This document shows positions 1-10,860 of a DNA stretch of 10,860 bases, piece after piece. The position numbers and the translations under genes were made by a program. Each line of letters opens with the position of its first letter. Positions within the stretch are counted from its first letter, which is position 1. The DNA comes from an uncultured Oscillospiraceae bacterium. GTDB lineage: Bacteria; Bacillota; Clostridia; Oscillospirales; Oscillospiraceae. Location of the stretch: positions 1-10,860 of the forward strand of contig CAKUHJ010000059.1 of assembly GCA_934655935.1 (NCBI GenBank). The letters are read 5' to 3'. The notes under the pieces were generated by a model. That model worked only from the letters and a program-made list of their open reading frames with translations. It was not told the DNA's origin and ran no database searches.

Positions 1-354
1 CGCTGTTTCCGTGCTCCAGCCTTCAGCCGGCGTGCAGTCCTTAGTCTCCTTGCCGCCGCATACGCTGCAGGTATGGCTGTGCTTGCCTGCTCCGTCCTCT
101 GCCCAATTGCCAAAGCTGCATTTCTGAGCCTCTCCAAACGTATGCGCAGGATTCACACTGCAGACCAGCTCATGTGTCTTGTTCTCACTGTTAAACTGCC
201 ATTTGAGCGTTCCCTTGTTTGTAACGCTTTCATCTGCCGCACAAGCCGGGCAGGTCTCCCCAGCCTTCTCATTGTCAGCAAACGCCGCGGGGATCATGGA
301 GATCACCATGACGAGCACCAGCAGAAGGCAGGTCAATTTTTTAAAAACCTTCAT
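1..354 (-). CDS. Secreted Cys/His-rich repeat protein, N-terminal part (runs off window)
   Basis: The frame is open from an ATG at 354 to the left edge, giving 118 residues with no stop. AGAGGT (361-366) lies 6 bases upstream of the ATG. Residues 1-26 form a classic Sec signal peptide: MKVFKK, a Leu/Val/Met core, then a cleavage site near AAFA|DN. The mature part carries two CXXC pairs (TCPAC and TCSVCGG), further single Cys residues, and the motif HSHTCSVCGGKETKDC. This resembles the Cys/His-containing repeats seen in many large Firmicutes surface proteins, and the visible part may hold the first repeat units. Zn binding or disulfide bonding is possible but not shown. Codon use is clearly less GC-rich than in the pilus operon, and the gene is separated from it by a terminator-like hairpin, so it is probably its own transcription unit. 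The function and C-terminal domains cannot be told from the fragment. Confidence 0.85.
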   Translation of the reverse strand, partial: MKVFKKLTCLLLVLVMVISMIPAAFADNEKAGETCPACAADESVTNKGTLKWQFNSENKTHELVCSVNPAHTFGEAQKCSFGNWAEDGAGKHSHTCSVCGGKETKDCTPAEGWSTETA

Positions 355-478: not shown

Positions 479-508
479 ACCGGCCTCCCCGGATACAGGG
501 AGGCCGGT
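479..508 (-). terminator. Probable rho-independent terminator of the pilus operon
   Basis: A perfect 11-bp stem (479-489 with 498-508) closes an 8-base loop and begins on the last base of the final pseudopilin's TGA stop. On the minus strand the stem is followed by TCTGTATT, a U-rich but interrupted tract, so termination may be imperfect. Its place between the end of the operon and the promoter of the next gene supports the call. Confidence 0.65.
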
Positions 509-1017
509 CAGCCGCTCTCGTCGGCCAGGGAAGGCGGCTGGTTGAGCTGATGCACCTCAAACTCCGTTTCGCACAGGCGCTTTCCCGCCGCGTCCTGCAC
601 GCAAAGGTATACCGCGAAGTTCCGGGTATCCGGGTCGTAGGCCGTAAGCTCCGCCTGCGCGCGCAGACCGTAGGGATAGGCCTTGGCCGGAAGCAGCTTG
701 TTTTCGCCCAGCAGCACCTGCCCGTCCTGATTCTGGGAGAAGCCGGAAAAGGCCGTCTGGCCGAAGCGCTGGCTGAAAAAGCCGATGGGCCTTCCGGCCT
801 CCTGCCGCACGACGCCCGCATAGCGCAGCTCGTCGCTGACGGAGGTCTTGAGCGTCTGCAGCAGCACCTGCGCCTCGGAATACGAGACGGACTTTGCATA
901 GCTCCGCACCCCGAGCAGCACGCCCGTGAGCATCCCCGCGCTCACCAGCACCAGCACCGCCAGGACGCACAGAAGCTCCACCAGTGTAAAGCCCTTCCGG
1001 CCCCGAAGCTTTTTCAT
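508..1017 (-). CDS. Minor pseudopilin, PilW/GspJ-like
   Basis: This 169-residue protein has the class III leader MKKLRGRKG|FTLVELL: cleavage after Gly9, Phe at +1 and the key Glu at +5. A hydrophobic helix of about 22 residues and an amphipathic stretch (VRSYAKSVSYSEAQVLLQTL) follow, as in pseudopilins. The C-terminal part is beta-rich with two Cys ten positions apart (YLCVQD and RLCETE), which may form a disulfide. I chose the ATG at 1017 over an upstream in-frame start at 1038: two overlapping GGAGG sites precede 1017, the leader then has the usual length, and the gene no longer overlaps its neighbour. In Gram-negative systems the PilW/GspJ protein joins the PilV and PilX equivalents in the pilus tip or priming complex. 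The PilW label rests on the N-terminus and gene order. It is the last gene of the operon. Confidence 0.85.
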   Translation of the reverse strand: MKKLRGRKGFTLVELLCVLAVLVLVSAGMLTGVLLGVRSYAKSVSYSEAQVLLQTLKTSVSDELRYAGVVRQEAGRPIGFFSQRFGQTAFSGFSQNQDGQVLLGENKLLPAKAYPYGLRAQAELTAYDPDTRNFAVYLCVQDAAGKRLCETEFEVHQLNQPPSLADESG

Positions 1018-1021
1018 TGTA

Positions 1022-1030
1022 CCTCCCTCC
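1022..1030 (-). promoter_or_regulatory. Tandem Shine-Dalgarno deciding the PilW-like start
   Basis: Two overlapping GGAGG sequences (1022-1026 and 1026-1030) lie 4 and 8 bases before the ATG at 1017. They sit in the 17-base gap after the upstream stop codon. The alternative start at 1038 would place this site inside the coding region. Confidence 0.75.
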
Positions 1031-1034
1031 CGTC

Positions 1035-1319
1035 TCAAGGCGTTTTGGTATAAAAGCGGTAGCCGTTGCGGGTGTAGGCCTCGACGTCAACCGAAAAGGC
1101 CTCCGCCGTCACATTCTCCGGCTCCACGGTCAGCGTCTGCGTGCCGGCCGGCTTCGCGTCCGAATAGCGGAAGGAGACGTCGGTCTCGTGCACGGCGCGG
1201 TTGAGCCGGGCAGCCACGGCGATGGCTGTGGCCAGGAAGAGCATCACAAGCGTCACCACCAGAAGCGCCAGCAGCGACTCCACCAGCGTCTGGCCCCGGC
1301 GGTCTCTGAGCTTTTGCAT
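1035..1319 (-). CDS. Short minor pseudopilin, PilV/GspI-like
   Basis: This 94-residue protein has the class III leader MQKLRDRRG|QTLVESLLALLVV: Gly at -1 and Glu at +5, with Gln instead of Phe at +1. The helix continues to about residue 34, leaving a soluble part of only about 60 residues (beta-rich, ending YRFYTKTP). The QTLVESLLALL pattern resembles PilV/GspI pseudopilins. GGAGG (1327-1331) is 7 bases from the ATG and directly follows the stop of the preceding gene, so translation may be coupled. It lies between the PilX-like and PilW-like genes, a cluster equivalent to the GspI/J/K tip complex of type II secretion. It is short for PilV, but the reading frame is intact. Confidence 0.82.
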   Translation of the reverse strand: MQKLRDRRGQTLVESLLALLVVTLVMLFLATAIAVAARLNRAVHETDVSFRYSDAKPAGTQTLTVEPENVTAEAFSVDVEAYTRNGYRFYTKTP

Positions 1320-1331
1320 AGCCTGCCCTCC

Positions 1332-1997
1332 CTACTGCGTTTTGCGGATGCCGCTGCCCTCGCCGTCCGCCGTCCAGCGGAGCGTCGTGGTGACGGTGCG
1401 GGTCAGGCTTGTCTGGAAGTCCTTTTTCTGCACAAGCTCGTCCCCGCTCATTGTAAGCGCCATGCGGCAGGCGTGCGCCGTGTCCTCCGCAGCACAGAAG
1501 CGCACCGTCAGCGTATAAACGCCCTCGCTGCTGGTCTCGTCCTTTTTCTCATAGCGCATCAGAAACTCTGCCCGCACCGGCTCCAGCCCCTCGCCGGAGA
1601 TGGTGTAGACGGCGTCAAAGCTCTGCGCGGGGTTCGCCGCGCAGGCTTCGATCGCTTCGTTCAGGATCTGGCTGAAGGGCCCCGACGCCTTTGTGACGTG
1701 CGTCGTGGTCGTGGGGTTCCAGTCCCAGTAATAGTTCTGATAGCTGCTGTAGGTTTTGGTCAGGGTCTTTTCATAATTGCCGCTGCCGCAGAGCACGCTG
1801 TCGCGCACAAGCTCGGCCGCGGAGCTGACCGTAAGCAGCGACTGCTGCAGCGCGCGGTCGTTCCGCACGTCGCGCGCGGCGCTGATGGCCGCGGCCAGCA
1901 CCACCGTGCTGACCATCACCGCGACGAGAAGCAGCAGCATCGCCATCAGCATGGAGGCGCCCTGCCGGTTTTTCAGTTTGCGCCGCAGCGCCTGCAT
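1332..1997 (-). CDS. PilX/GspK-like minor pseudopilin lacking Glu5
   Basis: This 221-residue protein starts with a basic stretch (MQALRRKLKNRQG) and then ASMLMAMLLLLVAVMVSTVV, a hydrophobic helix at about residues 14-37. It fits a class III leader cut after Gly13, but position +5 is Met, not Glu. Lack of Glu5 is typical of PilX-type proteins and of GspK, which caps the pseudopilin tip complex and needs no partner above it. After the helix comes a region rich in Ala, Arg and Gln (RDVRNDRALQQSLLTVSSAAE), as in the PilX N-terminal domain. The rest is a mixed soluble domain with an aromatic Tyr/Trp/Thr patch at about residues 75-96. AGGTGA (2004-2009) lies 6 bases before the ATG, and the gene starts 24 bases after the giant pilin stop. 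The family call rests on N-terminus and context only. Confidence 0.78.
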   Translation of the reverse strand: MQALRRKLKNRQGASMLMAMLLLLVAVMVSTVVLAAAISAARDVRNDRALQQSLLTVSSAAELVRDSVLCGSGNYEKTLTKTYSSYQNYYWDWNPTTTTHVTKASGPFSQILNEAIEACAANPAQSFDAVYTISGEGLEPVRAEFLMRYEKKDETSSEGVYTLTVRFCAAEDTAHACRMALTMSGDELVQKKDFQTSLTRTVTTTLRWTADGEGSGIRKTQ

Positions 1998-2021
1998 GCC
2001 CGCTCACCTGCCCTTTCTGCC

Positions 2022-5000
2022 CTATTGCGCCGGAAATTCCTCCGGATTCTCATTCTGATTCTCGTCCGGGCTTTCGCCTGGGTCCTGATTTTCATCCGGC
2101 TTTTCTTCCGGCTTCCCGTCCGGGGCTTCCTCCGGCGTCTGCTCCGCCGGGAGCGTCACGCGGAGGGTGAAGTCTGTTTCCGCATAGCGGCAGAAAAGCA
2201 CAAGCTCTGCCTCCTGGGTGCGGGCGCCGCCGTCCGGGGACGAAAGCGTCAGCGTCTGAAGGACGTAATCCCCCGCGCTCTGCGCCTGGCCAAAGCTCAG
2301 GAAATAGCCGGAGGCTGCCGCAGGCAGGTCCTCGTCCGTGCCGTCCGCCCAGCTGAGCTGCGCGCCGGTCACCGTTACGCCGTCAAAGCTGCCGCCGGAG
2401 CCGAACAGGCACAGCCCCAGGCCGGAAAGCTCCAGCTCCGGCGCGCCGGAGGCCGGCCTTCCGCTCGGGAGCTTCACCTGCGTCAGCGTGCCTGCAAAGC
2501 TCAGGCCGAAGACATCCGCCGGGGTTACGGTGTACTCGATGCGCAGCGTAGCGGCCGTTTCCGCGCTGCCCGCCTCCGCCGTGCCGAGCGGATACGCATA
2601 CGCGCACGTCACGCTCAGAATCGCGCTGCCGGCGGAGAAGCCGGTCACCGGAACGTCATAGGTCCCGGTTTCGGGGTTGAACGTGGGCTCGGCGTCCGCA
2701 AAATCGAAAATGTCCGGGCCGTCCGGGTCCTCCTTTTCCTGCCGGAGCGTCCAGGTCAGGGTGCGTCCCGGCTGGGGAAGGATGGGATTGCCGGCGCTGT
2801 CGGTCAGAAGGAGGCGGAGGGTGTGCGTTTCCTCCTCGCGCAGCTCCACGCGCCCGGCCTCTGCCGCAAGCTTCAGCTCCGCCCTGACGCGCACCAGCAT
2901 ATCCGCCTGCACGCCTCCGGCGCTTACGCGGACCAGGATCTCCGCCTCGCTCGGGAACAGGCCCTCAAAGCGCACGGCAAAGCCGCCCTCGGTCGGCGTG
3001 ATATCATAGACGCGAAGGGGCGTCTGTTCTTCGGAGAGCGGGTTTGCGTCCTCGTCGAGGAAGGAAATCTGATCAGCGTCCAGAGCCGCCAGGCCGCTTC
3101 CGTGCACGTAGAGCGTTTTCTGCAGAAGCGGGGTCTGCGCCTGCTCGTCAAAATCGGACAGAAGGTCGAATTCCGCCCGGCTCTGCTCCCAGAGAAGGCC
3201 GTAGCGCGGCCACGCGCCATAGTGCACGCTGACCGTGCTGCCGAACGCGTCCGTCTGGGTCAGGATGGTCGGGAAGGGGTAGTTCAGGCCCTTGAGTGCC
3301 GTATCCCCGCCAGGATAGGAATATTTTCCGCTGATGTCCGCGCCGTTTTCCACCGTCGTGACCGTTCCGAAGCCGCCGTAGTAGCCGCGGTTGAGCTTGC
3401 TCAGGAGTCCGTCCGTGCCGGTGTCGCGCATCTGCTCATAGCTCAGATACGGTGTGGAGGCGTTGTAGCAGCGGATGGCGCGCTTCCAGGCGTCGCCCTT
3501 GCTGTTTGCGTCGGAGCGGTTGTTCAGGTTCACGCCGCTGGTGCTGTTCCAGCCCTGTTCATCCCGGAAGGAAAGGTAATCATCCGTCGCCGACACGGCG
3601 GAATTCAGCGCATAGCAGTTGTAGATTTCCGCATGGGGGTTGACGATGGTATAGCCGTCCATGGCCGTCTGGAAATTGCTGGACTGCATTTCGCCGTTGG
3701 AGGCGATGGAATACGAGCCCGCAACCTGGTTTGAAATCCGCTTCGGCAGCTGGACGAAGCTGTAGCAGTCGTAAAGCCGCAGCACATCCTCCACCGAGCC
3801 GATCAGGTCCTGCATGGTGCCAAGGCAGCGCAGCACCACGCCGCTGGCGATTCCGCTGGTCCAGATGTTGACGCCCTGGCCGTTCGCCCTGACATTTCCG
3901 GGAACGGTGCTGACAATCGAGCCGCCTGCGTAGCAGCTGTGAATTTCGGACCGGCAGACGCCCGCAATGCCGCCGACCCGGATATTGTTCCAGCTGGCCG
4001 TATAGGTAAAGCTGATGCGGATATCGTTTACGGCTGTGCAATTCTGGATATTGATGTTCGTCGCGCCGACAAGACCGCCGACGTTGCCGCCGCCCCAGCC
4101 GCCGTTCTGGCTGTGGAGGTCCAGAATCTGATAGCCGGAAACCGTACAGTTGGAGATGCTGTCCGAGGTGTCATAGAAGACCTCTGGGTCGCCGCGCGTG
4201 GCAAAGCCGACAAGGCCGCCCATGCAGTACCAGTTCGGCACGCTTGCCGAGCGCCCCGTCACCGTATTATTCCGGTCGGTATACATGACGATGTTGCGCA
4301 GCTTTGCCGCAGCGGTGATGCCGAAGATGCCGACGCACTGGAGGTCGCTGTTGATCTCCAGATTCTTGATCACATAGTCCTGCCCGTCATAGGTGGAGGT
4401 GAAGAAGGCAATGTAGGCGCTGGCCTTTGCCTTGTCCGCGCCCTCGATGTCCACCATGCTGCCGATGGGCACATGAAGCCTGGCGGTCCTCCCGTCCGGA
4501 CCGGCGCCATATTCCTTATAGGCGTCGATATCATGGCTCTGCTGCCAGACAAGCGGCTTGGCGCCCGCGGCCTTCTGGCGGTCGCTGGAAAAGACCAGAT
4601 AGCTGAACCGGGCGCTGTTTTCATCAAACGTCCATCCGCCCGCTCTTGTATTGTTCGGAATGCCGTATTCCGCGCTCAGACAGCCGTAGTTCCAGTTGAT
4701 GAACTGCAGCTGCGCGGCCGAGCGGACCTGATACGGGTTTTTCTCGCTGCCGGGCTTGGCTGCCTCCGGCTGCGCGGCGCTTTCCGCGCCCGTTTCGATC
4801 CGGTCCAGGCTGATGGCCGCGGCAAAGAAGGGGCTGATAGAATAGGTATAGCTGGCCGCCGCGCCATAGCTGAGCGTCCAGGTCGCGTTGAACGCCGCGC
4901 CGTCCAGCCGGAGGCCGCCGGTGGTGTTCGCGGTATCCGTCGTGCGGAAGGCCACGAAGGTATACTCCGGCATCTGCGCGGCAAGGTTCCGGCTGGCCTG

Positions 5001-8000
5001 CTCGTCCAGGGCGGACTGCTCGTCCGTGCCGTAGCAGTTCTGCACGGTAAGCGTCGGCTCGGCGCTCCCGGTCTTGTAGAAATAGCCGTAGCCGTAGCGG
5101 GCAATGTAGCCGCCGTCGTCGTGCGCGACGCAGAGCGAATGCCCCTGCAGAAGATCCTCCGCCTTCTGTCCTGGCTCCCCGGTCTCATCCGCCGCGGCAA
5201 GAAGCGCAAGCTGCTCCTCCTGATCCTCAGAGCCGATGAGCTGCCCCTGATTGGTGCCGATATAGCTGAAATGGTAGCCGCTGTTGCTGCTGCCGGTTTC
5301 ATATTCCCAGTAAAACACACCGAGCGTGCCGATATCCTTCTGGATGGGCCAGTTGCCGTAGTGCACGGTGCGGCCCTGCGCGTCGGTCACAACTGCCGGA
5401 TAGGGATAGGCCTCCTCGTCCGTCTCCTCGTGGGCATAGCTCTCCTGTGCCCAGGAAAAGCCCGCGATGCCGCGGTCGGCCAGAAGCTCGCCCGTCAGCG
5501 CCGTACCGGCGGCCTGGGCAGAGAACTGGTTGGTCGAGGTATTGTAGGCATAGAGCCCGCCGGCATAGGCGTAGGTTCCGCCGTCGAGGTAGAAGCAGCC
5601 CGCCGCCACGCCGCCGACGTGCGCAAGGCCGTAGGACTCCGCCGTGCCGGAGGCGGTCAGCGCGTTCGCGCTGTAGCAGCGGCGCAGCGCGCCGCCGTTG
5701 TTGTCTGCGGCGAAGCCCGCAAGCCAGACCGTGCTCTCGTCCGCGTCGATGGCGCGGATGCTGCCAAGCGCGTAGCTGGCCGTGATGGAGCCCCGGTTGC
5801 GCCCGGTAAAGCCGCCCGCGCAGACATATGCGTTCGTCGCGGCAATTTCCACATCCGCCGTATCCGCCGAGCAGAACTGCACCGTGCCCTCGTTTGTGCC
5901 GAGAAGGCCGCCCAGGTAGGCCGTGCTGGAGCGGTAGCTGTAGGCGCGCATGCGGTAGCCGCTGGCCGCGCAGTTCTGGACCGTGCCGTAGTTTTCGCCC
6001 GCCAGCGCGCCCAGGGCAATGCGCAGGCTGCTGCCTGAGGCTGCCGCGCCGCCGTCTGAATTGAAATAGCGTACACAGACCTCCGCGTCCGCCGGGGTCT
6101 GCTCGCCTCTTGCCAGCAGCACTACATTCTTTACCAGCGCGCCGCGCGCAATGGCCCCGAACAGGCCGACCTGCGTATCGCTCGCAGCAAAGCCCACGCC
6201 GCGGATTCTCCGGCTCCCGCCGTCATAGACCGAGGCGAAGCCTCCGAGCGCGCGGCAGGTAATCGGCGTCTGCTCTGCAGCGGTGTCCATGCCCGCGTAG
6301 GTATCCCAGAGATAGGTGGAATAGTCGATATCCAGCTCCTGCTGGAACTGACTGCCCGCCGCCAGAGGCGCATACTGCGCGTAGTCGCGGCTGAGCTCGT
6401 AGAGCTGGCGGGCCGTGCGGATAGAAACCGTCTGCGGCATGGCGGGAAGCGCGTCGTTCACCACGACGGATTTTGCCGTGCAGGGATTAAAAAAGAAGCT
6501 GCGGTTGCTGACAATGAGCTGCTGATAGAAGCGCGCAAAATCCGTGTGCTTTTCCTGCACCGCCGCCAGCGGAAGCGGCAGAAGCGTATAGGCCGTGCCG
6601 GCGCTGTCGGCAGTCCGGATGGCGCCGGCCTTGTCCATGGTATATTCCGTGCCCTCGTAGACATAGCGGATTTCCTCGTCCGGAAGGTCGGTATAGGCAA
6701 GGGCGTAGCCGTCGCCCAGGGCCGTGCAGCCGGTGCGGAGCGTCGACTTGTTCGCGCCGCTGAAGCCGTAGGCATAGGCCTTCGTCTCCTCGTCCCAGTA
6801 GACCTCGTAGTAAACCAGCGAGCCGGATTCAAACCGCGCCTGCCAGTCTCCGTAGTGGTCCAGCGCCTTCAGACGCGGGTAGGAATAGGTCATCAGGCCC
6901 TGCTCCAGCAGGTTGTAGGCATAGGTTGCGTCGCCGGAAGCCAGCGTGAACACATCCGCGCCGAGGGCCGTGACAGCCTCCTCACCGGAAAGGGCCTCAA
7001 AGCTCATGCCCTGCGTGCCGGGCATGGGGGTATCGAGCTCAGAAAAGCCCGAAAGATACAGAACGTTCTGCGGCGCGGTTCTGCAGCCGGCCGCCGTGGA
7101 GTAGACGGTAAGGCCGTCCTCCTGGGCGGCGTAGTCAAAGGCGGCGTAGCTGCTGTGAACCGAGTCAAGCTCTCCCGGCGCAAAGCCTGCGGCCTGCCGC
7201 CCCGCGGTCTGATAGCCGGCGGCATAGACGCGGCTGAGCGCGATGCGCGCCGTTTCGCTCTCGTAAATCCAGCCGACCAGACCGCCGGTGTACGGCGCGC
7301 TCAGATAGCAGTCGGCATAGGAATCCTCGATTTGCAGCGCGCACCCGGTCTCTCCGACCAGGCCGCCCGCGTGCTCCTCCGCTTCAATGACCGTTGCGGC
7401 CAGGCAGCCGGTAATTTTCGCGCTGCCCGTGCCGGACACGCGGCCGAGAAGCCCTCCGGTCTGCTTACCCCGGAGCCAGGGACGGACCTCCCCTGCGCTT
7501 TCCGCCTTCGCCTCGTCCGTAATATCGCCCTGTGTCTGGCTGAGGAAAACGCGGCAGCCGGAAAGCTCCAGCTCTCCGCTGACCAGCCCCGCAATCGCGC
7601 CGACATAATTGCCGCCGTCGATGCGCGCGCCGGTAAGCGTCACGCTGCAGATGCTTCCGGCCGCCCTGCGGAACAGGCCCGCGTCCTCCTGCCCCTGGTC
7701 TGCCACATGCAGGCCGTGGATAGAGGCGTAGAGCGTCTGGCCGTCGAGCGAGGAACTGCCGTCGAAGCTTCTGAGGCAGGAATTATCGATGGGCGTAAAG
7801 GGCATATCGTTGTAGACGCTGTACCAGTCCGTCTGGCTCGTGGCGTCGTCATGGAAGGAAATGTCGCTGACCTGCACGGCCTTTGTGATGGACGCGTCCA
7901 CCTTCGAGGCCTGATCCAGGTTCTGCAAGTGCCGCCCATAGGCAAGATAGGCCGTGTCCGCCGCGCCCTTGGGCTCATAGGCAAAGAGGCTGTTCGTGTC

Positions 8001-8942
8001 GCGGCTGGCGCTCTTTGCGTCGATAAGCGGGCTGGAGCTTGAAGCCCGCAGCGTGACGTTCAGCGTTTTTCCGCAGGCAAAGCCGCCGCCCACCTGCTCG
8101 CAGAAGCGCTGCTCGGCCGGGTCCAGGCTGTCCAGCACCCAGGTATAGCGGTACGTGCGCAGGTTGACCGGCACAAGCTCCGCGTGCTGCACCGTGCGCT
8201 TCAGGACGCCGCCCTTGCCGTCGGAGAGCGTGATTTCAAACGTCAGCTCGTTCTGCTCGCCCTCCCGCGCGGCGGGGTTGTTGCAGTAGAAAACTGCCGT
8301 CAGCTTTTCTTCATTATAAATGGTGATATCGGGGCGCAGCTCGCTCGTGGTCTCCACAAGGGCGATATCGCCGCCGTAATAGCCGATGCGCGCGCCGCCG
8401 CGGAGGCGGGCCTTTTTCGCGCGCAGCGAATCAAGCTGCTCCGGTATTTCCGCCTTTTCGCTGTAAAAGACCGCATACACGCTCGCGCTCAGCGGGTCGT
8501 ACTCAATGTACCAGTTGTGCGCCCAGAGCTCCTGGTCCACGCAGGCCGCCGGCAAAACGGCATAGGCCGCCATGCCCTTGGTCTGCTTGTCCTCCGAACG
8601 GACAAACACGAGCGTATTCTCGTCCAGGTCCGTGTTGGAGCTTGCCGCATCCGAGGGAAGATAGCCCAGCTTCTGCGCGCCGTTTGCGCCGTCTGTATCG
8701 GCGTAAAGGTCCTCATAGCCGGACGCGCGCAGCTCCGCAAGGCGGTTCTGCGCGGCGACATAGATAATTTCAGCCTTGCTGTCCAGCTCCTTCTGCCGGA
8801 GATTCTTCCGCGTGTTTAAAAGCGCCAGCAGCGCCACGGCAAACAGCACTACCAGAATGGCCACGACAATCAGCGTCTCGACCATGGTAAAGCCCCGGCG
8901 GCTCCTGCGGCGGATATTCTGTTTCAGGGAAGAACGGTTCAT
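2022..8942 (-). CDS. Giant modular type IV prepilin with Glug-like beta-solenoid adhesin modules
   Basis: This 2306-residue protein (about 245 kDa by length) begins with a complete class III leader: RRRSRRG|FTMVETLIVVAIL, with Gly17, Phe at +1 and Glu at +5. A hydrophobic helix (18-40) and amphipathic helix (to about 80) follow, exactly as in pilins. Residues 135-195 hold WYIEYDP and RIGYYGG; residues 205-305 look beta-sandwich-like. Three large modules follow (about 334-701, 842-1199, 1407-1912), each with repeats like the Glug motif (GGLVG... then NCYA-type turns), consistent with a beta-helix. Residues 1940-2265 are Ig-like, one resembling bacterial Ig/invasin domains (LTDSAGNP). A Pro/Glu/Asp/Asn tail ends the protein, with no LPXTG motif or C-terminal membrane segment. 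The start is the ATG at 8942, not the in-frame TTG at 8969, because AGGAG lies 7 bases before the ATG. Known modular pilins such as PilB and PilC of Streptococcus sanguinis suggest a pilus-borne adhesin; ligand unknown. Confidence 0.93.
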   Translation of the reverse strand: MNRSSLKQNIRRRSRRGFTMVETLIVVAILVVLFAVALLALLNTRKNLRQKELDSKAEIIYVAAQNRLAELRASGYEDLYADTDGANGAQKLGYLPSDAASSNTDLDENTLVFVRSEDKQTKGMAAYAVLPAACVDQELWAHNWYIEYDPLSASVYAVFYSEKAEIPEQLDSLRAKKARLRGGARIGYYGGDIALVETTSELRPDITIYNEEKLTAVFYCNNPAAREGEQNELTFEITLSDGKGGVLKRTVQHAELVPVNLRTYRYTWVLDSLDPAEQRFCEQVGGGFACGKTLNVTLRASSSSPLIDAKSASRDTNSLFAYEPKGAADTAYLAYGRHLQNLDQASKVDASITKAVQVSDISFHDDATSQTDWYSVYNDMPFTPIDNSCLRSFDGSSSLDGQTLYASIHGLHVADQGQEDAGLFRRAAGSICSVTLTGARIDGGNYVGAIAGLVSGELELSGCRVFLSQTQGDITDEAKAESAGEVRPWLRGKQTGGLLGRVSGTGSAKITGCLAATVIEAEEHAGGLVGETGCALQIEDSYADCYLSAPYTGGLVGWIYESETARIALSRVYAAGYQTAGRQAAGFAPGELDSVHSSYAAFDYAAQEDGLTVYSTAAGCRTAPQNVLYLSGFSELDTPMPGTQGMSFEALSGEEAVTALGADVFTLASGDATYAYNLLEQGLMTYSYPRLKALDHYGDWQARFESGSLVYYEVYWDEETKAYAYGFSGANKSTLRTGCTALGDGYALAYTDLPDEEIRYVYEGTEYTMDKAGAIRTADSAGTAYTLLPLPLAAVQEKHTDFARFYQQLIVSNRSFFFNPCTAKSVVVNDALPAMPQTVSIRTARQLYELSRDYAQYAPLAAGSQFQQELDIDYSTYLWDTYAGMDTAAEQTPITCRALGGFASVYDGGSRRIRGVGFAASDTQVGLFGAIARGALVKNVVLLARGEQTPADAEVCVRYFNSDGGAAASGSSLRIALGALAGENYGTVQNCAASGYRMRAYSYRSSTAYLGGLLGTNEGTVQFCSADTADVEIAATNAYVCAGGFTGRNRGSITASYALGSIRAIDADESTVWLAGFAADNNGGALRRCYSANALTASGTAESYGLAHVGGVAAGCFYLDGGTYAYAGGLYAYNTSTNQFSAQAAGTALTGELLADRGIAGFSWAQESYAHEETDEEAYPYPAVVTDAQGRTVHYGNWPIQKDIGTLGVFYWEYETGSSNSGYHFSYIGTNQGQLIGSEDQEEQLALLAAADETGEPGQKAEDLLQGHSLCVAHDDGGYIARYGYGYFYKTGSAEPTLTVQNCYGTDEQSALDEQASRNLAAQMPEYTFVAFRTTDTANTTGGLRLDGAAFNATWTLSYGAAASYTYSISPFFAAAISLDRIETGAESAAQPEAAKPGSEKNPYQVRSAAQLQFINWNYGCLSAEYGIPNNTRAGGWTFDENSARFSYLVFSSDRQKAAGAKPLVWQQSHDIDAYKEYGAGPDGRTARLHVPIGSMVDIEGADKAKASAYIAFFTSTYDGQDYVIKNLEINSDLQCVGIFGITAAAKLRNIVMYTDRNNTVTGRSASVPNWYCMGGLVGFATRGDPEVFYDTSDSISNCTVSGYQILDLHSQNGGWGGGNVGGLVGATNINIQNCTAVNDIRISFTYTASWNNIRVGGIAGVCRSEIHSCYAGGSIVSTVPGNVRANGQGVNIWTSGIASGVVLRCLGTMQDLIGSVEDVLRLYDCYSFVQLPKRISNQVAGSYSIASNGEMQSSNFQTAMDGYTIVNPHAEIYNCYALNSAVSATDDYLSFRDEQGWNSTSGVNLNNRSDANSKGDAWKRAIRCYNASTPYLSYEQMRDTGTDGLLSKLNRGYYGGFGTVTTVENGADISGKYSYPGGDTALKGLNYPFPTILTQTDAFGSTVSVHYGAWPRYGLLWEQSRAEFDLLSDFDEQAQTPLLQKTLYVHGSGLAALDADQISFLDEDANPLSEEQTPLRVYDITPTEGGFAVRFEGLFPSEAEILVRVSAGGVQADMLVRVRAELKLAAEAGRVELREEETHTLRLLLTDSAGNPILPQPGRTLTWTLRQEKEDPDGPDIFDFADAEPTFNPETGTYDVPVTGFSAGSAILSVTCAYAYPLGTAEAGSAETAATLRIEYTVTPADVFGLSFAGTLTQVKLPSGRPASGAPELELSGLGLCLFGSGGSFDGVTVTGAQLSWADGTDEDLPAAASGYFLSFGQAQSAGDYVLQTLTLSSPDGGARTQEAELVLFCRYAETDFTLRVTLPAEQTPEEAPDGKPEEKPDENQDPGESPDENQNENPEEFPAQ
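2025..2135 (-). repeat. Low-complexity Pro/Glu/Asp/Asn C-terminal tail of the giant pilin
   Basis: The last 37 residues contain only P, E, D, G, K, N, Q, S, A and F, with imperfect repeats such as KPDENQDPG and SPDENQNEN. At DNA level this gives recurring short TTC/TCC/CGG-type units. The tail resembles cell-wall-spanning stretches of surface proteins, but no sorting signal follows it. Slippage between strains is plausible. Confidence 0.7.
3207..4724 (-). repeat. Solenoid module 3 of the giant pilin (residues about 1407-1912)
   Basis: The module opens with RSAAQLQFINWNY and closes with YPFPTILT... and HYGAWP. Inside are YDGQDYVIKNLEI, VGIFGITAAAKLRNIVM, GGLVG twice, and turn motifs SNCTVSG, QNCTAVN and HSCYAGG. 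It is the longest of the three modules, about 500 residues. Limits are approximate and set by the shared opening and closing motifs. Confidence 0.65.
5346..6419 (-). repeat. Solenoid module 2 of the giant pilin (residues about 842-1199)
   Basis: The module opens with RTARQLYELSRDYA and closes with YPYPAVVT... and HYGNWP. Inside are YDGGSRRIRGVGF, VGLFGAIARGALVKNVVL, LGGLLGTNEGTVQFCSA, FTGRNRGSITASYALG and RRCYSAN, a close match to the Glug pattern. It shares order and end motifs with modules 1 and 3. Confidence 0.65.
6843..7943 (-). repeat. Solenoid module 1 of the giant pilin (residues about 334-701)
   Basis: The module opens with AYGRHLQNLDQ and closes with YSYPRLKALDHYGDW. Inside are NYVGAIAGLVSG, LSGCRVFL, TGGLLGRVSGTGSAKITGC, HAGGLVGETG and YTGGLVGW. 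These are Glug-like turns with the same opening and closing motifs as the other two modules. Limits are approximate. Confidence 0.6.
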
Positions 8943-8949
8943 GGCAAAG

Positions 8950-8954
8950 CTCCT
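8950..8954 (-). promoter_or_regulatory. Ribosome binding site deciding the giant pilin start
   Basis: AGGAG (in TGCAGGAG) is 7 bases before the ATG at 8942. It lies inside the coding sequence if the upstream TTG at 8969 were the start, so the ATG is preferred. With it the leader is 17 residues, ending RRSRRG. Confidence 0.8.
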
Positions 8955-8999: not shown

Positions 9000-9545
9000 T
9001 CAGGCGTCCGCGTCCAGCTCAAAGAAGGTGACGGACAGGCTGGTCTGCACCTTCTCGCCGTCGTTTTCCGGCAGCTCGATGGAAAGGTCCGTGACCTGGT
9101 TGATTTCCTCGGCGGCATAGAGCGCATCGAGAATGCTTCTGGCCTGCGCGTAGGTATCGGTCGCGAAGCTCAGCTTCACGGTCCGGCAGACAATGTACTG
9201 CGCGTCAAGCCGCCGCGGCTCGGAAAAGCTCAGGCTGACCTCGCCGGCGTCCTTTAAAATGGCGTTGAGGCTCAGAAGCAGCCTTTCGGAATTGTCGTAG
9301 GCCGGAAGCGGCTTTTCCTCGCCCGCGGCGCGGATTTCCTCCAGCTCCTTCTGCATGGCGTTCCTGCGGGCCAGCCGCACCGTATCGACCGTGATTTCGT
9401 CCTGCTCGCTGGCGGTCATCGCCTGATTGCGCGCAATGGAATCGTTGATGGGCGTGAGAATGAGCTTGAAATAGCCGACGGCGATGATCAGGAAGGCGAG
9501 AACCGCCAGAAGGACCTTCTCTCTGGTTGTAAAGCTCCGGTTCAT
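9000..9545 (-). CDS. pilO: PilO-like inner platform protein of the type IV pilus
   Basis: This 181-residue bitopic membrane protein has a short cytoplasmic N-terminus (MNRSFTTREK), one membrane helix at about residues 11-30 (VLLAVLAFLIIAVGYFKLIL), a charged heptad-like coiled-coil region at 35-77, and a C-terminal alpha/beta domain with alternating strands, as in the ferredoxin-like fold of PilO/GspM. In T4P systems PilO pairs with PilN and links the PilM ring to the growing pilus. AGGAGG (9553-9558) is 7 bases before the ATG, and the start overlaps the pilN stop by 4 bases (ATGA), which suggests translational coupling. The closing segment (QTSLSVTFFELDADA) is acidic. No pilP or pilQ follows, as expected for a cell without an outer membrane. 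PilO and GspM are hard to tell apart by eye; context favours PilO. Confidence 0.85.
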   Translation of the reverse strand: MNRSFTTREKVLLAVLAFLIIAVGYFKLILTPINDSIARNQAMTASEQDEITVDTVRLARRNAMQKELEEIRAAGEEKPLPAYDNSERLLLSLNAILKDAGEVSLSFSEPRRLDAQYIVCRTVKLSFATDTYAQARSILDALYAAEEINQVTDLSIELPENDGEKVQTSLSVTFFELDADA

Positions 9546-10159
9546 TCGGCGGCCTCCTTCTGCACGTTCTGAAGTGTGACGGTCAGCGTGAAATCCAGCT
9601 TTTCCGTCTGCGCGCTCTGGCGGGCTTCGGCCAGATTCAGGCTGGCCGCCGCCACAAGCGGCCGGGCCTGGAGCCGTGTCAGCATAGAGGAAATTTCCTC
9701 AAGGCTCATGCCGGACATGGACACGGTCATCGTGTCCTCCTTCATGCGCACGGCGCGCACCTCGCCGTAGGGCGCAAGATAGTCCTCCAGCAGCTCCAGC
9801 GCGTCCACGCGCTCGACGCGGACGAAGCTTCCCGTCGTGTCCTCGTAGAGCCATTTGCGCGAATAGGTCCGGTATTCCTTCTGCACCTCGGGGTAGTCCG
9901 CAAGCGCGTTCTGCAGCGTAACCAGCTGCGCGTGCACGCTCTGATAGGCCGCCTCGGCCTGGCGCTGGCGCTCGAGCTGGTCCAGCACACCGAACTTTGT
10001 CACGCAGAAGCACAGCGCCGCAATCGCCAGCGCGCCCAGCGCAAGCGTCAGGGCGCTGCCCGCGCGCGATTCGCGCCTGGCAAGGTTCACCGTGCGCTTG
10101 ACCGGGCATTTGACAGGCCTTGCGCCCTGCTTGGATACGGGCTTCAGTTCCAGACTCAT
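9542..10159 (-). CDS. pilN: PilN-like inner platform protein of the type IV pilus
   Basis: This 205-residue protein has a basic cytoplasmic N-terminus of about 33 residues, one membrane helix at 34-54 (SALTLALGALAIAALCFCVT), a coiled coil at about 58-92 (LERQRQAEAAYQSVHAQL) and a C-terminal alpha/beta domain. Residues 24-30, VNLARRE, resemble the INLLP..RE motif with which PilN binds PilM in characterised systems. Here about 23 extra residues precede it, an unusual extension. I chose the ATG at 10159: AGGGGG is 7 bases upstream, and this ATG overlaps the pilM stop as ATGA, mirroring the pilN-pilO junction. The ATG at 10165 is only 1 base from that site. Sequence identity to known PilN appears low, so the call depends on topology, motif and position between pilM and pilO. 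Confidence 0.85.
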   Translation of the reverse strand: MSLELKPVSKQGARPVKCPVKRTVNLARRESRAGSALTLALGALAIAALCFCVTKFGVLDQLERQRQAEAAYQSVHAQLVTLQNALADYPEVQKEYRTYSRKWLYEDTTGSFVRVERVDALELLEDYLAPYGEVRAVRMKEDTMTVSMSGMSLEEISSMLTRLQARPLVAAASLNLAEARQSAQTEKLDFTLTVTLQNVQKEAAE

Positions 10160-10860
10160 ACGCATGCCCCCTGTGCCTGCAGCGCGCAGCCCGCCGCGCG
10201 GACAAACAGCTCCGGCGTCTGCGGCAGCTGCCCCTGCGGAAGAAGCTCCGCTGCGGAATGGAGCTCCAGCCTTGTCATCTCAGCGACAGCCTCGCGCAGC
10301 GGCGCAAGCAGCGCGCCGCCGCCCAGAAGATAAATCCGCTGCAGGCTCTTCTCGCGGTTGTTATAGTTATAGAAATTCACGGCCTTCATGATCTCCACGG
10401 CCATGCGGTGGTAGAGCTCCAGGCTCTCCGGCTCGGTCAGAACGCCCTCAAAGCCGGCGTCCACATACTTCCTTGCCAGGTGCTCGTCCACGCCCCGCCG
10501 CTCGGAGACCGAGCGGACCAGGTCCGCCAGGCCCAGCCCGATGGTTCTCTGATTGACCGGCGCGTCGCTGCGCAGAAACTGCAGCCGCGCCGCGTTGTAG
10601 CCGAGGTCTACAAAGCAGCAGTCCTCCGTCTGCGCGGCCTTCTGCACGCGGATGAGCGCGGCGTAGGCGCTCTGCTCCGGAATCGCCAGCTTCAGCCGGA
10701 AGCCCGCGCGGCGGAGCATGGCGCGGTAGGCCTCGATCGTCGCTTTGAGCGCCGCGCAGGCAAACAGCTGCAGGCGCTCGCCTCCCTCGGTCTGGCTGTG
10801 GCCGAGCACTGCGTAGTCAAAATAATACTTGCTCTTCTCCTGGGTCAGATAGTCCCGGAA
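10156..10860 (-). CDS. pilM: Type IV pilus assembly ATPase PilM, C-terminal part (start outside window)
   Basis: The frame is open to the right edge, with 234 residues visible. PilM is usually about 350 residues, so roughly the first third is missing. It belongs to the actin-like (FtsA/MreB/Hsp70) ATPase superfamily. Visible are the phosphate-2-type motif FVDLGYNAARLQFL, the helical region after IGLGLADLVRSVSERRGV, and the adenosine motif LLGGGALLAPL near the C-terminus. The sequence between, LYHRMAVEIMKAVNFYNYNN, is typical of PilM. In the cell PilM forms a cytoplasmic ring, binds the N-terminus of PilN and connects the PilB/PilT motors to the platform. The GTG at 10809 is internal, because the PilM-like frame (EKSKYYFDYAVLG) continues upstream of it. 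The stop overlaps the pilN start (ATGA). Confidence 0.93.
   Translation of the reverse strand, partial: FRDYLTQEKSKYYFDYAVLGHSQTEGGERLQLFACAALKATIEAYRAMLRRAGFRLKLAIPEQSAYAALIRVQKAAQTEDCCFVDLGYNAARLQFLRSDAPVNQRTIGLGLADLVRSVSERRGVDEHLARKYVDAGFEGVLTEPESLELYHRMAVEIMKAVNFYNYNNREKSLQRIYLLGGGALLAPLREAVAEMTRLELHSAAELLPQGQLPQTPELFVRAAGCALQAQGACV
10167..10172 (-). promoter_or_regulatory. Ribosome binding site deciding the pilN start
   Basis: AGGGGG lies 7 bases before the ATG at 10159 but only 1 base before the ATG at 10165. The spacing and the ATGA overlap with pilM favour the inner start. Confidence 0.6.

What the first reader, a model, noticed from the sequence alone, without database searches (positions are those of the whole stretch)
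2022..8942. A 2306-residue type IV prepilin that is itself a giant adhesin
The protein has an intact class III leader (RRSRRG|FTMVE with Glu5) and pilin helix, so it should be processed by prepilin peptidase and enter a pilus, yet carries over 2200 residues of Glug-like solenoid and Ig-like sequence. Modular pilins with grafted domains are known (PilB and PilC of Streptococcus sanguinis) but are far smaller. Typical pilins are 100-200 residues. It may act as a one-per-pilus tip adhesin. That it is tip-located is inference.
Basis: partly seen in the sequence, partly recalled or inferred. Interest (0 to 1): 0.85.

Follow-up and report, generated by a model that had tools for sequence, protein, structure and literature searches.

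The report
Giant rod-bearing type IV pilin family
This gene encodes a pilus-building protein about fifteen times larger than usual, whose extra length is predicted to be a long rod ending in antibody-like domains; similar giants occur beside pilus genes in related bacteria and may give their pili a very long tip.

The parts
2022..8942 (-). giant prepilin gene, 2306 aa, 245 kDa after cleavage, pI 4.5
8950..8954 (-). AGGAG ribosome-binding-like site, 7 nt before the ATG
   Evidence: sequence
8892..8942 (-). class III leader peptide, residues 1-17 (ends ...RRSRRG)
8724..8891 (-). pilin alpha-1 helix, residues 18-73; Glu5 = E22
   Evidence: helix 20-73; profile position of F18 falls on residue 1 of the chain in 14 of 21 matches
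8346..8723 (-). pilin head, residues 74-199, with predicted strands
   Evidence: fold not tested alone
7968..8345 (-). Ig-like / beta-sandwich domain, residues about 200-325
6834..7967 (-). beta-helix module 1, residues about 326-703, HYGDW at 696
6429..6833 (-). linker region, residues 704-838
5340..6428 (-). beta-helix module 2, residues about 839-1201, HYGNW at 1194
   Evidence: strand pattern, (profile homology to modules 1 and 3); barely covered by the fold search
4734..5339 (-). second linker region, residues 1202-1403
3204..4733 (-). beta-helix module 3, residues about 1404-1913, HYGAW at 1907
2136..3203 (-). C-terminal Ig-like domains, about three, residues about 1914-2269; least conserved folded part
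2025..2135 (-). Pro/Glu/Asp/Asn-rich low-confidence tail, residues 2270-2306
10156..10860 (-). pilM (partial in window)
   Evidence: PF11104 42.1 bits over its cut-off; TIGR01175 58.1 bits, under its 133 cut-off
9542..10165 (-). pilN-like
   Evidence: PF05137 21.6 bits, just under its 22.8 cut-off; position
9000..9545 (-). pilO/GspM-like
   Evidence: PF04612 27.2 bits, just under its 27.8 cut-off; position
1332..1997 (-). small prepilin-like gene X, GspK-like by position and missing Glu5 (GASMLM)
   Evidence: GspK model only E 0.055 (13 bits, cut-off 130); no N_methyl match
1035..1319 (-). small prepilin gene V, Glu5 present (GQTLVE)
   Evidence: N_methyl 20.7 bits, just under its 21.2 cut-off
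508..1017 (-). small prepilin gene W, Glu5 present (GFTLVE); start ATG 1017 with a ribosome-binding-like site rather than TTG 1038
   Evidence: N_methyl 28.4 bits

Best explanation
A giant minor type IV pilin. Steps: (1) The prepilin is inserted in the membrane by its N-terminal helix with its 2200-residue remainder outside (inferred). (2) Prepilin peptidase cuts after Gly17 (inferred from the leader and from pilD-like genes near relatives). (3) With the three small prepilins X, V and W it forms the tip/priming complex of a monoderm type IV pilus, filling the fourth (H-like) place; X, which lacks Glu5, is the likely cap (inferred from gene order and motifs). (4) Being bulky, it is presumably used at or near the tip and points a rod made of an Ig-like domain, three beta-helix modules and about three Ig-like domains away from the filament (fold predicted, placement inferred). 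My rough guess, not computed from coordinates, is 30-40 nm. (5) The conserved rod acts as a stalk and the fast-varying distal Ig-like domains as the contact surface for a host, food or microbial ligand (inferred). Pilus retraction would then pull on that contact.
For: Leader and N_methyl; Glu5 in 77 of 78 homologues and 27 of 27 loci. The N-terminal profile matches 21 PDB sequences at E<=1, of which 19 bear a pilin, pilus, fimbrial or prepilin name, and in 14 of 21 the residue after the leader Gly falls on chain residue 1. Operon: X, V and W all lie in the same fetched stretch as the giant in 12 of 26 loci, X and W in 3 more, and some other pilus gene in 22 of 26. L001 carries pilB, T, C, major pilin, D, M, N, O, giant, X, V, W in one run, with no further small pilin in that run. 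X lacks Glu5 in 16 of 16 rows, V keeps it in 15 of 15 and W in 16 of 16; PMC10191384 (passages) says the tip complex is capped by a subunit lacking Glu5. Rod. Distal divergence: mean pairwise identity 0.30 for residues 1914-2269 against 0.48-0.62 for the mature chain before it.
Against: No experiment shows processing, incorporation or binding. Homologues were found with queries that include the leader, which favours leader-bearing hits. The giant was not compared with GspH/FimU in structure; the H place rests on gene order and on no other candidate in the L001 run, while that genome has two more N_methyl places elsewhere (frames of 335 and 144 aa). The names X, V, W as K-, I-, J-like rest on order and Glu5, not on strong profile matches. 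4 of 26 loci show no other pilus gene in the fetched stretch (L038, L047, L048, L056; L038 is cut by a contig end), and the small-pilin context differs in 6 more (L050-L055). Low conservation of the end domains may be relaxed constraint rather than ligand diversity. The fold searches barely covered the pilin head and module 2; for the second half Foldseek's first 50 rows are Ig-domain proteins and the IgA1 protease match comes from the VIA second look.
Confidence: 0.6

Rival explanations
1. A prepilin-like, membrane-anchored surface protein: the leader and helix only tether it outside the membrane and it never enters a filament, so it works like an ordinary cell-surface adhesin.
For: Its size (245 kDa) is a burden for assembly; no C-terminal anchor was found (no LPXTG-type motif in the last 60 residues, no second strong membrane helix), so the N-terminal helix could be the anchor; 4 of 26 loci show no other pilus gene in the fetched stretch.
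Against: Glu5, which is taken to serve subunit docking, is kept in 77 of 78 and 27 of 27. Signal-peptide surface proteins carrying the same GLUG motif exist in the same genomes, so a plain surface version would not need a pilin leader. Clustering with minor pilins.
Confidence: 0.2
2. A shaft subunit spread along the pilus, giving it side rods, rather than a tip subunit.
For: Glu5 is present, so it can have subunits above it; PMC10191384 (passages) notes that system-specific minor pilins can lie along the shaft.
Against: It sits with X, V and W, which resemble core tip pilins; a 2200-residue graft would have to leave the packed shaft sideways.
Confidence: 0.12
3. A pilus-tethered protease: the GLUG region marks an M26-type peptidase, as suggested for N_methyl plus IPR011493 architectures by Raynaud 2021.
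Against: The matched part is the N-terminal beta-helix domain; the active site is formed with the middle and C-terminal domains (PMC7695701 passages). HExxH occurs neither in the window protein nor in any of the 198 proteins then held, one of which (P0001) is nearly the window's own.
Confidence: 0.04

Closest known systems
Modular type IV pilins PilB and PilC of Streptococcus sanguinis
   Same: pilin module with a grafted non-pilin module; monoderm; PilB is a shown adhesin (PMC8179133, passages)
   Different: processed PilB is 50.5 kDa; here 245 kDa with several modules. The paper's most extreme case of multiple added domains has 860 residues; relatives here reach 5255
Pilins with N_methyl plus IPR011493 mentioned by Raynaud 2021
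   Same: probably the same architecture class (that IPR011493 is the GLUG entry is recalled, not looked up)
   Different: read there as an M26 peptidase module; no size, operon or family analysis in the passages seen; its Dataset S1 was not seen
M26 IgA1 proteases of S. pneumoniae and G. haemolysans (6xja, 7uvk) and 3n6z of B. ovatus
   Different: no HExxH; the beta-helix is repeated and carried by a pilin
PilHIJK / GspHIJK tip complex
   Same: a set of minor pilins of which one lacks Glu5 (PMC10191384, passages)
   Different: the fourth member is giant; structural identity with H not tested
PilY1/PilC
   Same: large tip-located effector in diderm pili (PMC10191384 and PMC8179133, passages)
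   Different: not a pilin and works through the minor pilin complex; here pilin and effector are one chain
Kil tip complexes of Myxococcus xanthus (PMC12075869, passages)
   Same: minor pilins with extra modules at the tip; several alternative tips per genome, as the three giants of genome G156 may be
   Different: Tad type, other domains, no chain of this size described in the passages seen

Membership tests
type IV pilins | class III leader, Gly at -1, Glu at +5, hydrophobic stretch | tested here: met
   window protein; relatives: (several have Ala at -1, P0188 has Gln at +5)
type IV pilins | long alpha-1 helix | tested here: met
   predicted helix 20-73
type IV pilins | beta-sheet head packed on alpha-1 | tested here: inconclusive
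   strands predicted, but the fold search rows covered mainly 211-696
type IV pilins | cleavage by prepilin peptidase and assembly in a filament | not testable with these tools
   needs the bench; pilD-like genes lie near several relatives
modular pilins | non-pilin module grafted behind a pilin module | tested here: met
modular pilins | the grafted module has its own function | not testable with these tools
   no ligand known
M26 IgA1 peptidase | beta-helix of the N-terminal domain | tested here: met
M26 IgA1 peptidase | HExxH zinc site | tested here: not met
   absent from the window protein and the 198 proteins then held
HIJK tip complex, H subunit | gene next to K-, I- and J-like minor pilins | tested here: inconclusive
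   X, V and W with the giant in 12 of 26 loci, but that X, V, W are K, I, J rests on missing Glu5 and order, not on a strong profile match
HIJK tip complex, H subunit | structural homology to GspH/FimU | not tested
sortase-anchored surface adhesins | C-terminal LPXTG | tested here: not met
   last 60 residues

The most novel reading that the evidence does not exclude
In one lineage of monoderm bacteria the pilus tip is a built-in fibre: the H-place minor pilin is a rod of roughly 700 to 5255 residues whose length grows in part by duplication of beta-helix modules, often ending in an HYG[DN]W motif, from one to about eight copies. The pilus machine then serves mainly to hoist and pull back a single very long reaching tip, like a harpoon, with rod length tuned to the wall, mucus or target and with specificity in the distal Ig-like domains.
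Probability: 0.3. Interest if true: 0.82.

Novelty: new variant of a known kind. Interest (0 to 1): 0.64.

Why it matters
Pilins are thought of as 100-200 residue bricks, and the modular ones in the papers I saw are mostly modest. A conserved family of 2000-5000 residue pilins sitting in the minor-pilin cluster would suggest that the pilus machine can assemble very large cargo-bearing subunits and would offer a direct handle on what these pili hold on to. It also argues against reading the GLUG module on these pilins as a peptidase.

Tried and rejected
Own genome: none held. A first genome scan with the single protein found no relative; an alignment found six. Peptidase reading rejected by the absent HExxH. 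Misassembly or chance fusion rejected by homologues aligning end to end. Small free-standing versions of the head: one search gave 30 hits of 139-401 aa; the seven I read look by eye like cut-off or frame-shifted pieces of giants; the other 23 were not read, so small relatives are not excluded. Module ladder: the number of HYG[DN]W-type caps rises with length among the 92 of 105 proteins with at least one cap (Spearman 0.47, p 2e-6), but not clearly over all 105 (0.18, p 0.06), because 13 proteins (1307-3413 aa) have no cap; so capped modules explain length only in part. The strict cap pattern counts 7 in the 5255-residue protein; one more ends in F. Many weak hits are ordinary short pilins and were not counted as giants. 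Terminator scan: no minus-strand site between operon genes and one inside the giant, taken as chance; 13 sites found against 9.3 (sd 3.3) in shuffles; one promoter-like site against 1.8. Literature: (modular pilin; GLUG with pilin; giant and large pilin wordings; Oscillospiraceae pili; GLUG motif with prepilin; pilin sizes; Hominenteromicrobium with pili) showed no paper on giant pilins, but the longer ones list only the best 12-20 of up to 1,967 papers, and preprints and most subscription papers are not held. The absence of pilin chains from the fold-search rows is not taken as evidence.

Full report
What was checked. The reported ORF exists as described: 2022-8942 on the minus strand, ATG at 8942 with AGGAG seven bases upstream, 2306 residues. 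The first 17 residues end in RRSRRG, followed by FTMVE and a hydrophobic stretch. Pfam N_methyl (24.9 bits, cut-off 21.2) and Glug (30.6 bits, cut-off 20.5) are over their cut-offs, as is TIGR02532. The mature chain is 245 kDa, pI 4.5, has no LPXTG-type motif in its last 60 residues and no other strong hydrophobic segment; one 19-mer at 925 is marginal.

Setting. The window is a type IV pilus operon read on the minus strand: pilM (10860-10156, cut by the window), a pilN-like gene, a pilO/GspM-like gene, the giant, and three small prepilin-type genes here called X (1997-1332), V (1319-1035) and W (1017-508). The pilN, pilO and V model scores lie just under their curated cut-offs and X has no N_methyl match, so these names also rest on position and on matches to the same genes of relatives. 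Genes overlap or lie within 60 nt of each other, and no minus-strand terminator-like site lies between them.

Family. A search with residues 1-500 reports 2349 proteins at E<=1e-3 among 7984 scored; of the 120 listed, 119 are 2218-2452 aa and one 1305. Eight representatives were taken from these 120 at less than 75% identity in the first 450 residues, the window standing in for its near-copy P0001; they align end to end, the other seven at 44-50% identity to the window. A second search from an Anaerotignum relative gave 78 proteins of 1215-3413 aa; 74 of 78 fit the strict leader pattern, three more keep Glu5 by eye and one has Gln. Both queries include the leader. Among 295 genomes of the order of G001 (the genome of L001, titled Oscillospiraceae bacterium MH27-2) 46 have a match at E<=1e-8, but only 18 carry one in an open frame of at least 1000 residues (my count from its rows); among 398 genomes of the phylum 6 match at E<=1e-12 and 4 of these, the centre included, in such a frame. 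These are lower bounds, because at most 6 or 4 candidates per genome were scored. The longest is a 5255-residue frame without a stop or N, between pilM-N-O and X-V-W of genome G156 (L040).

Gene neighbourhood. I examined 26 loci: the six and 20 places picked for strong matches and mostly long frames (other places of that list were not fetched at length). X, V and W all lie in the fetched stretch in 12 of 26; X and W in 3 more; some other pilus gene in 22 of 26; none in 4. Labels come from blastp to the window and four loci; in L003 the X and V labels rest on E 0.006 and 0.004 plus position. In L001 the order is pilB, pilT, pilC, major pilin, pilD, pilM, pilN, pilO, giant, X, V, W; its genome has two further N_methyl places elsewhere. 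In L039 the trio precedes the giant. X has no Glu5 in 16 of 16 rows, V keeps it in 15 of 15 and W in 16 of 16. A review (PMC10191384, passages) states that core minor pilins form a tip complex capped by a subunit lacking Glu5. That makes X the expected cap and the giant, which keeps Glu5, the fourth member just below it. This is inference from gene order and motif; no comparison with GspH or FimU was made.

Internal repeats. Profile comparison finds modules 1, 2 and 3 homologous (1-2 E 3e-10, 1-3 1.5e-6, 2-3 6e-20), against 0.15-0.8 in eight control pairs of unrelated regions or shuffled columns (eight sequences, so E-values are rough). The modules carry HYG[DNA]W at 696, 1194 and 1907. Such caps number 1.88 per protein over 105 proteins, against 0.008 in shuffled sequences; cap number rises with length only among capped proteins, and 13 of 105 have none. 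Other GLUG proteins of three of these genomes, read at seven places, show by eye signal peptides, a lipoprotein start or C-terminal membrane or repeat ends where the ends are visible, and none shows the cap.

Where it varies. Across the eight representatives mean pairwise identity is 0.62 in the helix and 0.48-0.53 from the head to residue 1913, then 0.30 in the last Ig-like domains and 0.13 in the tail. A conserved rod with a variable end is what one expects of a stalk that carries a contact surface, though relaxed constraint would look alike.

Not a peptidase. In S. pneumoniae the matched beta-helix (residues 781-1070) belongs to the N-terminal domain; catalytic residues come from the middle and C-terminal domains (PMC7695701, passages). 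HExxH is absent from the window protein and from the 198 proteins then held.

Literature. Raynaud 2021 (PMC8179133, passages) reports over 1,200 modular pilins in 264 architectures, names an 860-residue protein as the most extreme case of multiple added domains, and mentions N_methyl with IPR011493 as a predicted M26 peptidase. So the kind is known and this architecture was probably listed (that IPR011493 is GLUG is recalled). My searches listed no study of pilins of this size; the longer listings were cut.

Verdict. It is a giant variant of modular pilins with a recurrent place in the minor-pilin cluster.

Noticed in passing
window 1-354, minus strand: Start of a signal-peptide-like protein with CxxC/HxxxC-type repeats (by eye), probably another surface protein, after the operon; cut by the window end.
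   Followed up: no
window 1017-3734, 3939-6038, 6546-8042, plus strand: Long open frames of 905, 699 and 498 aa antisense to the giant and its neighbours, probably shadows of GC-rich coding sequence.
   Followed up: no
L040 1995-17762 (G156:C14): A 5255-residue prepilin with seven or eight capped beta-helix modules; the same genome has two more giants (L038, L048).
   Followed up: partly
L055 2992-12348: A 3118-residue pilin relative with an F5/8 type C domain (32.3 bits, over its cut-off) and no Glug match at E 0.01, a possible carbohydrate-binding version; it lies by a differently arranged pilus cluster.
   Followed up: no
L056 2880-13097: A 3405-residue pilin relative with GLUG, a FIVAR match under its cut-off and no other pilus gene found in the 17 kb fetched.
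   Followed up: no
window giant, residues 134-2251: 36 cysteines in a predicted extracellular protein, 8 of them invariant in eight representatives.
   Followed up: no
L046 12051-13039: A second X-V pair directly after the first X-V-W trio, perhaps an alternative tip set.
   Followed up: no
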